From Microlunatus speluncae (GTDB lineage Bacteria; Actinomycetota; Actinomycetes; Propionibacteriales; Propionibacteriaceae), in assembly GCF_009299835.1 (NCBI RefSeq), contig NZ_VKCZ01000008.1:1-64000 (forward strand): a stretch of DNA of 64,000 nucleotides, given 5' to 3'. The notes below the pieces were generated by a model that did not search any database, was not told where the DNA came from, and saw only the letters and a list, made by a program, of their open reading frames with translations. This document shows, piece after piece, positions 30,513 through 33,105 of the stretch (position 1 is its first letter; every line of letters begins with the position of its first letter). A program made the position numbers and the translations under genes.

Positions 30513-31187
30513 TCACGGCTTGCCCTCGATCAGTGCCGGCAGCTCGCTCGTCTGGGCGATGAATTGCTTCAGTTCCGGGGACAGCTGGCCGGCGACGTAA
30601 ACAATCCGGCGCCGCTGACTTTCAGGTGCTCGGTCGAAGAGTGATTCGTGGTGAGCGGCCCGGTTACGCAGTTCGCGGAGATCGGCCATCGCGGCGTTGA
30701 TGCTCGCGCGATCGGCTCCTGGTTGATAGACCCGGTGCAGCACAGGAACCCAGAGCGTCTTCTCGTGCAGATCGTCGGTGAGATAGCTCCAGAATCCGAA
30801 CATCAGTTCAGCGATGGTCTTTCCTCGCGGTGCGCCGCTGCTCAGGCCGGATCTCTCGCGGGCTTCCTTGATGCGGAGTCGGGGAGTCCAGTTCTTGTCT
30901 CGCTTACGTCCGTTCTCCCGGACAACGTGTGGCTTGAAGATCAACTCCGCGCCGTCTTCAGTAAGCCAGTCCCGCCCCGCCAGGTCAGGATGAATCCGCA
31001 ACGCCCGGTCGTACGCGTTGCGCAACCCCACTTCCAGATGTGCCAGGTCATGGAAGAACGCCGCAGCGAGTCGGACGTTCCAGTCGTAGAGCGCAACGGC
31101 ACGCTCCTCATCTCCACCAGCGGCGCGCAGATACTTGCTGAACCTTCCACTCGACAACCACTGGTCGATCCAGGACGAGGTCGTCAT
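30513..31187 (-). CDS. abiF: AbiF/Abi_2-family HEPN RNase-like protein
   Basis: The 224-residue protein matches the Abi_2 (AbiD/AbiF) family: short N-terminal WIDQWLSSGRFSKYL, YDWNVRLAAAFFHDLAHLEVGLRNAYD (about 34-60), a central WLTEDGAELIF...RGKTIAELMFGFWSYL, and the HEPN motif R-x4-H as RNRAAHHE (R174, H179). HEPN proteins of this type are RNases; AbiF causes abortive infection and has been proposed as the ancestor of Cas13. ATG 31187 sits four bases after GAGGA. A folded leader RNA precedes it. Codon use is less GC-biased than in neighbours, which suggests transfer. Known for the family: phage defence or toxin-antitoxin. Inferred: the same here. Confidence 0.82.
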   Translation of the reverse strand: MTTSSWIDQWLSSGRFSKYLRAAGGDEERAVALYDWNVRLAAAFFHDLAHLEVGLRNAYDRALRIHPDLAGRDWLTEDGAELIFKPHVVRENGRKRDKNWTPRLRIKEARERSGLSSGAPRGKTIAELMFGFWSYLTDDLHEKTLWVPVLHRVYQPGADRASINAAMADLRELRNRAAHHESLFDRAPESQRRRIVYVAGQLSPELKQFIAQTSELPALIEGKP

Positions 31188-31189
31188 CT

Positions 31190-31310
31190 CATCCTCGGCG
31201 TTGTAGAATCCGGTTAGTACGAGAGTTCCGTGCGACCGCTGCGCTGCATGTTTCCGGAGCCGAGGATTTTGGGAGACCCCGGTATTCAGCATCGCTGACC
31301 CGGGGTCTTT
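31190..31310 (-). ncRNA. Candidate abiF-type structured RNA upstream of the HEPN gene
   Basis: On the minus strand a composite hairpin comes first: outer stem AGACCCCGG / CCGGGGTCT (31300-31308 with 31274-31282) enclosing TCAGC-GAT-GCTGA. Two nested stems follow: CCTCGG (31260-31265) with CCGAGG (31193-31198), and TCCGG (31254-31258) with CCGGA (31209-31213). The CCGAGG strand is part of the ribosome binding site region of the Abi gene, so folding would hide it. Position and layout match what is described for abiF-associated RNAs (possible RNA antitoxin). An in-frame ATG at 31313 would translate through this region, but the pairing argues for RNA. Confidence 0.6.
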
Positions 31311-31521
31311 CATTTCTGCTGACCCAGCCCGAGCCGCCGCTCGATGCAGCCCGTGCGTTCCCGAATTTTCTCATGATCACAATTCCATCAGAACCGACCG
31401 ACACTCGAAGCTGGCCAGGCCCAGGAGGCGAACCCCGTCAGGTCTCTCTGACGATCACGAGGTTCGGGTGGTCACGCGAAGCCGACCGATCCGCACCGGC
31501 GGAGCGGGATCGATCGAGCCC

Positions 31522-31544
31522 TACCGTCGACGGGCTCAAGGAAC
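31522..31544. repeat. Diverged copy of the palindromic repeat at the 3' end of the DUF222 gene
   Basis: CCGTCGACGGGCTCAAGG plus flanks resembles the repeat core CCTTCGACAGGCTCAGG. On the minus strand it supplies the last codons (LVP) and the TGA of the DUF222 gene at 31536. Confidence 0.55.
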
Positions 31545-33048
31545 GAGGATCTTCGCCTGGATCGGGGTGGCAAGGGTCCAGAGGGCATGGGCGAAGGGGC
31601 CGTGGCCGAGATCGTGGGTGCCGGTGTGGTTGGTCAGATACAGCTCACCGTAAGGATCGCGGTAGATCATTGTGCCGGGTTCGGGCGAGCGTCGTTGCCA
31701 CCCGCCATGGGTCACGGCGCGGTGCTCGGTGCGGGCGTTCGGGGTGAGCCGGTCGATCCGGGTCTGGCCCGGCGGCCCGGCCCGTTGGCGACCGACGTAG
31801 GGCAGCACATGATCAAGATCCAAGGCGTTGGTCGCGGTCGACCACGGGAAGGTGCTCGCCGGATGGCGTAGCCGGACCTGGCGTTTGTGCCGGTCGGGAA
31901 TCTCATAGGCGTCGACCGGCGGCGGCGGATCGTTCAGGTCGATCACCGGTCGGACCTTCACGCGGTGGTGACCGAGCCACTGCTTGACCACACCCATCGC
32001 GGTCGGCCCGATGCCCGGCACCCGGCAGATCCCGCGGCCCTCGTCCAACGATTCGGCCGAGATGTGCACCACCATCGTGGTGCTGGGCATCAGGAGTTCC
32101 GGATCCAGCCCTGCAACGAGGCGGTCGACGGCAGCCCTGAAGACGGCAAGATCGAAGTCAGGCACGACCGGCCGGTCACGTAAAGCGGGGTGAACCTCGG
32201 ACTCCTCGATCGGCTCCTCCGGCTCGCCGTCGATCGGTTGCACGGCCAATGCAAGTTCATGATCGAACAACTCCGGCTGGCGGTGCTTGGCCATGATCTT
32301 GGTGGCTTGGAGCTCGTTGCCGAGCATCGCGAACGCCGTGGCGCGCCGTTGATCAGCCGTGCCGCTCCCGCCGGGCAGGCAGTCGGCGAGATCCTGGATC
32401 CGGCCGTACAAACGGATGGCGTCGGCCGGTTCGAGCCGGCCGTAGATCCCGCGGAGCCCATCGTCGTCGGGCTGGGTCAACCAGGCCCCGAGCCGGCTCC
32501 GGCGATCCTTGGCGTGCTGCTCGATCCGGTCGGCGTCGATGGTGATGATCGCGGCCTCGACCCGGTCCCGCAGCTTCGGCCACGGCACCACCCCGGCGAA
32601 ACCGGGCGACCTGCTCGTCGACCCAACGGGCTTGATCGAAGGTCAGGTCGTGGGTGAGTTGAGCGATCTGGCAGCCCTGCCAGCCGATCGCCTCACAGCG
32701 CATGAGTTTGCCCCACAGCAAGGGATGACGGTGGCGCAGATCAAGAGCCTGCCCGAGATACTGGCGGGCAGCGGTGTGGCCCTTCTGCGTTGCCGCTCCG
32801 TATGCCACCACCGACAGATCGTTGATCTCCGGCGTCCCCTCGCCGCCAGGCCGGGTCCCACGCGGCCCACCATCCACCAGAAGTTGATCGGGATGGATCG
32901 CCTCGGCCGGGTTGGCATCGGCCCAGGCGACAGCGATCACCAGCTGTTCGTTCTCGATCGCGATCCGGCGGCGCTGGACCCCGCGCGCGGCATCAAGGAT
33001 GCCGGCCGGTCCAAGGCCGTCCGCTCGCGAATCCAATGAATCGAACAT
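31536..33048 (-). pseudogene. DUF222/HNH endonuclease gene with a single-base frameshift
   Basis: The N-terminal frame (MFDSLDSRADGLGPAG... FDQARWVDEQVARF, from ATG 33048) and the C-terminal frame (VVPWPKLRDRVEAAI... to the HNH part LDLDHVLPYVG... NARTEHRAVTHGGW) belong to one DUF222 protein but are in different frames. The join is at the A triplet 32599-32601 (TTT on the sense strand); removing one base restores ARFAGVVPWPKL, a normal family sequence. About 500 residues would result. Either the gene is broken, or there is a sequencing error or +1 slippage. The HNH motif itself (DLDH, HGGW) looks intact. Confidence 0.8.
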
Positions 33049-33056
33049 ACAAGCGA
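33041..33056. promoter_or_regulatory. Possible degenerate LexA/SOS box over the DUF222 start codon
   Basis: TCGAAC-ATAC-AAGCGA has one perfect half of TCGAAC-N4-GTTCGA and half of the other. It overlaps the ATG of the DUF222 gene. It shares TCGAACAYACA with the site at 127-142 before the other DUF222 gene. Confidence 0.3.
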
Positions 33057-33105
33057 TTCTAGAACATCCCACTGACAATCGGTCGTCCTATCGCAGGACA
33101 TCGGC

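What the first reader, a model, noticed from the sequence alone, without database searches (positions are those of the whole stretch)
30513..31310. AbiF-type HEPN protein with a folded leader RNA: candidate RNA-controlled defence or toxin-antitoxin unit
Seen: an Abi_2-family protein with an intact R-x4-H HEPN motif (R174/H179), preceded by a composite hairpin (AGACCCCGG/CCGGGGTCT around TCAGC/GCTGA) and two nested stems, one of which (CCTCGG/CCGAGG) covers the ribosome binding site region. Known: HEPN domains in this family are RNases, abiF genes are associated with conserved upstream RNA structures, and AbiF has been proposed as the ancestor of Cas13. Inferred: the RNA represses or neutralises the toxin in cis, in trans, or both. 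The unit sits in a patch of weaker codon bias together with a broken DUF222/HNH gene and a kinase.
Basis: partly seen in the sequence, partly recalled or inferred. Interest (0 to 1): 0.85.

Follow-up and report, generated by a model that had tools for sequence, protein, structure and literature searches.

The report
RNase toxin with divergent RNA partner
Beside a gene for a predicted RNA-cutting toxin sits a small folded RNA with its own switch, read in the opposite direction; similar pairs recur in many unrelated bacteria, which suggests that the RNA keeps the toxin quiet until it is needed, for example during virus attack.

Summary
The protein (window 30513-31187, minus) is an AbiF-fold HEPN protein with intact RN-x3-H; its nearest named family is PADLOC PD-T4-5. 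The RNA is best read not as the gene's 5' leader but as a separate small RNA on the PLUS strand, divergent from the gene: -35/-10 at 31181-31209, predicted start ~31216, core hairpin 31225-31260, terminator hairpin 31274-31308. Of 30 dereplicated relatives, 28 have a -10 (TANNNT) on that strand at matching spacing, 1 for the sense-leader reading. RNA-first searches land beside the same gene family (16 of 21 strong hits). Base pairs covary (12 of 15 pairs; 0 of 500 shuffles as high). In four relatives the RNA lies upstream-sense or downstream, each with its own -10, which argues for a trans-acting partner. Best mechanism: an RNA antitoxin that binds and blocks the HEPN RNase (type III-like), freed on phage or stress. 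Known relative: AbiF with RF03085 RNA, sense in phage phiC2; Rfam finds nothing here. Transcription, neutralisation, toxicity and defence are inferred. Whether the unheld main AbiF paper covers this branch could not be checked.

The parts
30513..31187 (-). HEPN RNase-like protein of the Abi_2 / PD-T4-5 kind (predicted toxin), 224 aa, R174-N175-x3-H179
   Evidence: Pfam Abi_2 E 2.9e-5; PADLOC PD-T4-5 E 1.3e-9; R174, N175, H179, E52, R56, N57 invariant in 49 of 49; AlphaFold2 model pLDDT 93.3 matches PbAbiF 8vz6_A, Z 12.1, rmsd 3.1, 201 residues
31192..31196 (-). likely ribosome binding site of the HEPN gene (GAGGA)
   Evidence: read directly; not tested
31181..31186 (+). -35 hexamer TCGTCA of the RNA gene (overlaps the HEPN start codon)
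   Evidence: the only promoter-like site in 30900-31700, TCGTCA-17-TAGAAT, 9 of 12, expected 0.1
31204..31209 (+). -10 hexamer TAGAAT of the RNA gene
   Evidence: T, A and T of TANNNT are invariant columns in 9 of 9 aligned sequences, the window included
31216..31318 (+). predicted small RNA, about 100 nt, divergent from the HEPN gene (start inferred from the -10, end from the terminator)
   Evidence: both ends are predictions
31225..31260 (+). core hairpin: outer stem 31225-31230/31255-31260, GAC/GUU 31234-31236/31250-31252, loop C-G-C against U, inner UG/CA
   Evidence: model R2, not trained on the window, hits 31221-31273 plus strand, 23.0 bits, E 9.4e-5; R1 gives 15.2 bits, E 0.08. In 8 aligned relatives the GAC/GUU and UG/CA pairs are kept (4-5 of 5), the outer stem fully in 1 and 3-4 of 6 in 7 as aligned
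   Evidence: 9-pair outer stem kept in 9 of 9 rows, with changes on both sides at 31275/31307, 31276/31306, 31278/31304 and 31279/31303; my terminator score is reached on the plus strand only, but the standard scan lists no terminator-like site here

Best explanation
A two-part toxin-antitoxin-like unit. The minus-strand gene makes an AbiF-fold HEPN RNase (toxin, inferred from family). A separate ~100-nt RNA is read in the opposite direction from its own sigma70-type promoter and ended by its own intrinsic terminator. Its core hairpin (outer stem, a 3-pair stem, a C-N-C loop facing one nucleotide that is mostly U, an inner UG..CA stem) is the conserved ligand: it is proposed to bind the HEPN protein and block the active site in trans, as AbiFr/RCd22 do for AbiF. 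The RNA gene has the recognisable promoter and the HEPN gene has no enriched one, so RNA is expected in excess in growing cells. When phage or stress stops or outruns RNA supply, the RNase is freed and arrests the cell. Shown by comparison: the gene, the RNA gene with its strand signals, its conserved structure, its tie to this protein family. Inferred: transcription, binding, neutralisation, toxicity, defence.
For: Strand: TANNNT on the strand opposite the gene, starting 9-24 nt before the stem, in 28 of 30 dereplicated loci; 0 of 30 in a control stretch, 1 of 30 for a sense leader, 8 of 30 if the same stretch is read on the gene's strand. Terminator score higher on that strand in 56 of 69 loci; 57 against 18 over the threshold of 12, 64 against 53 over 8. 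Set not used to form the idea (prophage and viral loci): better promoter on that strand in 14 of 16, better terminator in 14 of 16. Plasmid and phage records: better promoter on that strand in 10 of 12. G-U outnumbers A-C 44 to 11 in the pairs as read on that strand. Structure: 97.0% of cells paired, 12 of 15 pairs with changes on both sides, covariation 0.326 against 0.161, 0 of 500 shuffles; slid versions at most 48%; both C of the C-N-C loop kept in 62 of 62 rows with letters. Association: RNA-first scan of 296 genomes, 16 of 21 hits of 37 bits or more lie beside this protein family, all 16 on the opposite strand. Trans action: same RNA with its own TANNNT upstream-sense (L047, L135) and downstream (L073, L068), none on the other strand at that place. 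RNA form follows the protein tree: 6 changes against about 13.6 shuffled, 0 of 500 as low (form assigned by me by eye). Fold: PbAbiF bound to ncRNA is the top structural match. AbiF-RCd22 biochemistry: PMC12373285 (abstract, sections 6, 7, 11, first part of 13).
Against: No transcript or binding data. The RNA gives no Rfam hit. The window's own signals are middling: promoter 9 of 12, no terminator in the standard scan, R1 only E 0.08, and whole-genome scans of the window's genome did not report the window RNA (R1 at E 1; R2 at E 1e-5). Rows of A6 are related, so the shuffle control overstates significance; 3 of its 65 rows are misfits that were kept. Two of 12 plasmid/phage loci (L125, L128) score better for a promoter on the gene's strand. 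Orphan RNAs exist (L083, L111, L114, L134, L093). R2 gave no hit at E 2 in 27 of 45 sources searched as the difficult remainder; RNAs of several of these (L038, L040, L128 and others) were judged by eye. Sense TANNNT occurs between hairpin and gene in 10 of 29 (no background computed for that stretch). The window lies in no clear defence island.
Confidence: 0.72

Rival explanations
1. Sense leader: the hairpins are part of the HEPN mRNA and act by attenuation or by hiding the ribosome site, as the first reader proposed and as RCd22 partly does by early termination.
For: The hairpin lies just upstream of the gene; RCd22 is co-transcribed with abiF in C. difficile (PMC12373285 section 7).
Against: Sense -10 at the matching place in 1 of 30; U-tract and G-U bias on the other strand; the ribosome-site stem is not conserved; downstream placements.
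Confidence: 0.05
2. [quoted passage not shown]
For: If HEPN transcription starts upstream of the RNA gene, the two RNAs would be fully complementary.
Against: Stem pairs are kept by covariation across distant relatives, which antisense pairing does not need; RNA on the gene's strand or downstream in L047, L135, L073, L068 cannot be antisense to the leader; the predicted RNA does not cover the ribosome site or start codon.
Confidence: 0.1
3. RNA-guided effector: the RNA is a guide, as speculated for Cas13 ancestors.
For: AbiF is the proposed ancestor of Cas13 (PMC12165695, PMC12737573, passages seen).
Against: The one-hairpin RNAs are almost wholly paired, about 57 nt as predicted, with only a ~4-nt 5' end and a U-rich tail; no variable spacer-like stretch was seen in the aligned rows.
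Confidence: 0.04
4. The RNA is an independent terminator or sRNA that sits beside the gene by chance.
For: Terminators right after tRNA genes score up to 39 bits with model R1 (L118).
Against: 16 of 21 strong RNA-first hits lie beside the same uncommon gene; the C-N-C loop and the U-A pair that opens the inner stem, not needed for termination, are kept in 62 of 62 rows with letters; RNA form follows the protein tree.
Confidence: 0.03

Closest known systems
AbiF with abiF RNA (RF03085; AbiFr of PbAbiF, PDB 8vz6; RCd22 of C. difficile)
   Same: AbiF fold over nearly the full length (Z 12.1); HEPN RN-x3-H; a small structured RNA with internal-loop hairpins beside the gene; one or two cores.
   Different: Rfam RF03085 does not match. 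Topology differs: C-N-C on the 5' side against one nucleotide on the 3' side, where the abiF model has one A on the 5' side and CAAAUC on the 3' side. The RNA is divergent with its own promoter and terminator signals, whereas in phage phiC2 both RF03085 copies are sense (one locus). phiC2 AbiF matches PADLOC AbiD and not PD-T4-5 at E 0.01.
PD-T4-5 (E. coli plasmid-borne abortive infection gene, distant relative of AbiF/D)
   Same: The PADLOC PD-T4-5 model matches 49 of 49 members aligned and the window protein at E 1.3e-9.
   Different: The passages read in PMC9519451 name only a gene; here an RNA gene goes with it. The original PD-T4-5 locus itself was not examined.
Type III toxin-antitoxin systems (ToxIN kind, recalled)
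   Same: Proposed RNA antitoxin bound directly by an RNase toxin.
   Different: No repeat array before a co-directional toxin; RNA and toxin divergent in most loci.
Cas13 / Cas13an
   Same: Related HEPN fold by the literature; EsCas13d 9eca appears as a weak row, Z 4.9.
   Different: One HEPN motif, 224 aa, no guide-like segment seen in the RNA.

Membership tests
HEPN superfamily, Abi_2/AbiF/AbiD group | R-polar-x3-H motif | tested here: met
   R174, N175, H179 invariant in 49 of 49
HEPN superfamily, Abi_2/AbiF/AbiD group | Pfam Abi_2 gathering score | tested here: inconclusive
   24.9 bits against 25.6 for the window protein; 42 of 49 members match at E 0.01 or better
HEPN superfamily, Abi_2/AbiF/AbiD group | AbiF fold | tested here: met
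   8vz6_A top match, Foldseek prob 1.00 (E 0.043), Z 12.1, 201 of 224 aligned, next row 6.1
PD-T4-5 (PADLOC) | match to the PADLOC protein model | tested here: met
   E 1.3e-9; 49 of 49 members
PD-T4-5 (PADLOC) | abortive-infection defence against phage | not testable with these tools
   needs a phage challenge
Rfam abiF RNA RF03085 | match to the covariance model | tested here: not met
   no hit in the window at gathering or in 30900-31560 at E 10; none in 13 relatives at E 10; positive control phiC2 gives 37.6 bits
Rfam abiF RNA RF03085 | sense orientation upstream of the gene, as in C. difficile phage phiC2 | tested here: not met
   opposite strand in 62 of 67 listed hits (L081 corrected); window RNA plus strand, gene minus
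Type III toxin-antitoxin | antitoxin RNA binds and inhibits the toxin protein | not testable with these tools
   inferred from AbiF-RCd22 and PbAbiF-AbiFr
Type I toxin-antitoxin | antitoxin RNA antisense to the toxin mRNA | tested here: inconclusive
   RNA upstream-sense in L047 and L135 and downstream in L073 and L068 speaks against antisense action there; not excluded in the window
CRISPR-Cas13 | two HEPN domains and a guide RNA | tested here: not met
   one HEPN motif in 224 aa; no guide-like segment in the RNA; a CRISPR array was not searched for

The most novel reading that the evidence does not exclude
A widespread, unlisted RNA antitoxin class for the PD-T4-5 branch in which one hairpin is both the antitoxin and its own intrinsic terminator. 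Because the antitoxin's 3' end is made by termination, any phage factor that changes termination or takes over the polymerase would directly spoil or starve the antitoxin, so the unit would act as a built-in sensor of phage transcription takeover. In the window's clade the two jobs are split between a core hairpin and a separate terminator.
Probability: 0.12. Interest if true: 0.88.

Novelty: new variant of a known kind. Interest (0 to 1): 0.63.

Why it matters
Relatives of this gene are annotated mostly as lone 'Abi family protein' or hypothetical genes and are common on plasmids (330 records by the window protein; 860 by a Vibrio relative) and in actinomycetes. If the divergent RNA is the antitoxin, a large group of supposed single-gene defence genes is really two-component, earlier cloning or deletion experiments may have kept or lost the partner unknowingly, and comparison with the sense-oriented AbiF RNAs gives a handle on how an RNA-inhibited HEPN toxin could become an RNA-guided one (the Cas13 question). 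The core loop, strand and promoter predictions are exact enough for direct tests.

Tried and rejected
Sense-leader model: disfavoured. Rfam identity: none. Sequence search of solved structures with the single protein: only csx15 at E 0.51; with the profile, 8vz6 at E 0.017 among DARPin rows that I take as spurious. MAFFT alignment A1 mixed long-loop and short-loop RNAs and was not used for the models; A3 was shifted by one column in part. Model R1 picks up terminators after tRNA genes as false positives: L094, L095, L096 and one of the two L118 hits follow a tRNA directly; the second L118 hit has the same sequence without a tRNA found before it. A stem finder in script often chose wrong helices outside the one-hairpin group and was not used for counts. 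A search for the C. difficile AbiF protein in viral contigs returned 25 loci, 24 of them 99-100% identical and one 89%, so they do not widen the sense-orientation control, which rests on phiC2 alone. Paper searches aimed at this arrangement: searches found 0 papers; one search found 1, the HEPN review PMC3710099 (passages seen); some searches gave, of relevance, the AbiF papers cited here. The main AbiF paper (Zilberzwige-Tal et al.) is known to me only as cited and by recall; PMC12804078 says it came with models named AbiF5_iter3.CM and diverse_rna_xinsi.CM (passages), which may already cover some of these RNAs.

Rows dropped before counts: one search used 69 of 77 upstream regions after dereplication; one search used the hairpins caught by one pattern (42 of the 69, L006 removed by hand as its hit was not the core), dereplicated to 30, of which L047 (RNA on the gene's strand) and L062 lack the -10; one search used 29 loci named by hand from those; one search used 67 hits that I listed by hand, leaving out second tandem copies, orphans, wrong-strand echoes, most hits under 20 bits and a few others such as L051 and L053 (both on the opposite strand); one search used 16 after dereplicating 31 of 36 loci (4 with late-starting matches and 1 with a short upstream left out). 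Among the 16 adjacent RNA-first hits, L086 is the locus already known as L066, the gene in L113 is split over two frames and that in L092 is cut by the contig end (E 6e-5).

Full report
What was checked. The ORF at 30513-31187 (minus) encodes 224 aa. It matches Pfam Abi_2 at E 2.9e-5, just under the cut-off, PADLOC PD-T4-5 at 1.3e-9 and AbiD at 2.7e-4. In an alignment of 49 relatives, R174, N175 and H179 never vary, nor do E52, R56 and N57. All 49 match the PD-T4-5 model, whereas the C. difficile phage AbiF matches only AbiD. The AlphaFold2 model (pLDDT 93.3) has PbAbiF bound to its ncRNA (8vz6) as top match: Foldseek probability 1.00 with E 0.043 and no match at E 0.001, and Z 12.1 over 201 residues with the next entry at 6.1.

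Where the RNA is and which way it runs. Upstream regions of relatives show a -10 and a U-rich tail on the strand opposite to the gene. In 30 dereplicated one-hairpin loci, 28 have TANNNT starting 9-24 nt before the stem on that strand, with 0 in a control stretch, 1 for the sense reading, and 8 if the same stretch is read on the gene's strand. Terminator-like scores are higher on that strand in 56 of 69 loci and lower in 13. A set not used to form the idea, 16 dereplicated prophage and viral loci, gives 14 of 16 for the promoter and 14 of 16 for the terminator (Wilcoxon p 0.004 and 0.0002). Of 12 plasmid and phage records, 10 have the better promoter on that strand; L125 and L128 do not. In the pair table read on this strand there are 44 G-U and 11 A-C cells; on the other strand the ratio would be reversed. 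In the window itself the only promoter-like site in 30900-31700 is on the plus strand at 31181-31209; the same scan lists no terminator-like site there, although the hairpin is followed by TTCATTTCTG and reaches my looser terminator score on the plus strand only.

Structure. The one-hairpin RNA is a stem of about 7 pairs, a 3-pair stem (GAC/GUC, GAU/AUC, GGC/GUC and others), a C-N-C loop facing a single nucleotide (U in 40, C in 18, A in 4 of 62 rows), and an inner stem opening with U-A. On 65 matches, 97.0% of cells pair, 12 of 15 pairs show changes on both sides and the covariation score is 0.326 against 0.161 in shuffles. Related rows inflate this, and three misfit rows were kept; the slid versions, which keep relatedness, fall to 48% or less. 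In the window clade the core hairpin and the terminator are two separate hairpins: across the window and 8 relatives the terminator's outer stem is kept in all rows with compensatory changes, the 3-pair and inner stems of the core are kept (4-5 of 5 pairs), and the core's outer stem is complete in the window and one relative and 3-4 of 6 pairs in the other seven as aligned. In the other actinobacterial groups the core hairpin is itself the terminator. On the protein tree this difference, which I assigned by eye, needs 6 changes against about 13.6 for shuffled labels, and the seven-member clade of the window is uniform (support 96/90). Model R2, which was not trained on the window, finds the window RNA with 23.0 bits, E 9.4e-5; R1 gives it E 0.08, and the whole-genome scans of the window's genome did not report it.

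Link to the gene. Scanning 296 genomes with model R1 gave 21 hits of 37 bits or more; 16 lie beside a member of the protein family, each on the opposite strand. Of the five others, two in L118 are look-alike terminators, one of them directly after a tRNA gene, and L083, L111 and L114 are orphan RNAs with no family member in the 3-4 kb fetched. A second scan with R2 gave five hits of 39 bits or more: two divergent, one upstream on the gene's strand (L135) and two orphans, L134 and L093. In 67 listed hits, 62 are upstream and opposite, 2 upstream and same strand (L047, L135), 2 downstream and same strand (L068 and L073, the latter a paralogue in the window's own genome), and 1 is at a contig edge (L081 corrected). 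In L047, L135, L073 and L068 a TANNNT stands 9-14 nt before the stem on the new strand, and none at that place on the other strand. From the protein side, R1 found the RNA at E 0.001 in 39 of 73 sources (for L068 the match was its separate terminator), and of the 45 sources searched afterwards with R2, 27 gave nothing at E 2, so the model does not yet cover all RNAs of the family. A partner that keeps its structure and promoter-like site while changing place and strand is best explained as acting in trans.

How it probably works. AbiF from C. difficile is toxic and is neutralised by RCd22 in cis and in trans through direct binding (PMC12373285: abstract and sections 6, 7, 11 and the first part of 13 read). 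PbAbiF is a dimer with two RNAs, and nucleotides in a bulge of AbiFr inhibit its RNase (PMC12737573, passages). By fold and by the presence of a cognate structured RNA, the same logic is proposed here: RNA from its own promoter, HEPN gene without an enriched promoter (sense TANNNT upstream of the hairpin in 4 of 29 against a shuffled background of 21% per window; 10 of 29 between hairpin and gene, background not computed), release of the RNase when RNA supply fails. PD-T4-5 gives abortive-infection-type defence in E. coli (PMC9519451, passages), which makes phage defence the likeliest use. Binding, toxicity and defence are inferred for this locus.

What is new and what is not. RNA-controlled AbiF is known. 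Not found in Rfam or in the papers searched: the divergent RNA gene, its different core, and its link to the PD-T4-5 branch in Actinomycetota, with the same strand signals in proteobacterial, cyanobacterial and other relatives. I could not read the main AbiF paper or its models, so the class is given as a new variant of a known kind.

Context. Of 245 genomes of the order, 37 carry a relative of the protein, the window's own included, and the ten same-genus genomes listed carry none, which suggests horizontal gain. The assembly is given as 97% complete with 7.8% contamination, so the host assignment of this contig carries some doubt. Neighbours are metabolic: an L-2-hydroxyglutarate oxidase on one side, a weak DUF222 ORF and an APH-type kinase on the other.

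Noticed in passing
L073 2389-3135 (window's own genome, contig C1): A second HEPN gene of the same kind has the same RNA core downstream of its stop codon, on its own strand, with a -10 (TAGACT) and U-rich tail.
   Followed up: yes
L085, L116, L117 (genome G352): A 2.2-Mb genome has six RNA matches: tandem core pairs at two places, one single copy, and one of the two-hairpin kind (L117), beside four HEPN genes.
   Followed up: partly
L083, L111, L114, L134, L093: Orphan copies of the RNA with no family member found nearby; L093 lies beside an ORF that looks like a transposase to me (not searched). Possible anti-addiction leftovers.
   Followed up: partly
L133 1501-1555 and 2307-2361: One HEPN gene flanked by two copies of the RNA, one on each side, both opposite to the gene.
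   Followed up: partly
L013, L017, L024: HEPN copies whose match lacks the N-terminus (L013, L017) or the C-terminal part (L024) also gave no RNA hit, as expected if toxin and antitoxin decay together.
   Followed up: no
L094, L095, L096, L118, L137: Intrinsic terminators right after tRNA genes resemble the outer stem of the RNA and score up to 39 bits; any survey must filter them.
   Followed up: yes
G000 assembly: The host assembly (6.8 Mb) is larger than the ten same-genus genomes listed (4.1-5.7 Mb) and has 7.8% estimated contamination; some contigs may be foreign.
   Followed up: no
window 31536-33078 (-): The DUF222/HNH-like region matches Pfam only weakly (DUF222 E 0.0069); whether it is broken was not settled.
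   Followed up: partly
L120, L123 (E. coli and E. fergusonii plasmids): Enterobacterial plasmid 'Abi family' genes have a TTGAC-type promoter and a terminator-like hairpin on the opposite strand; their RNA core looks different from the actinobacterial one and no model hit was found.
   Followed up: partly
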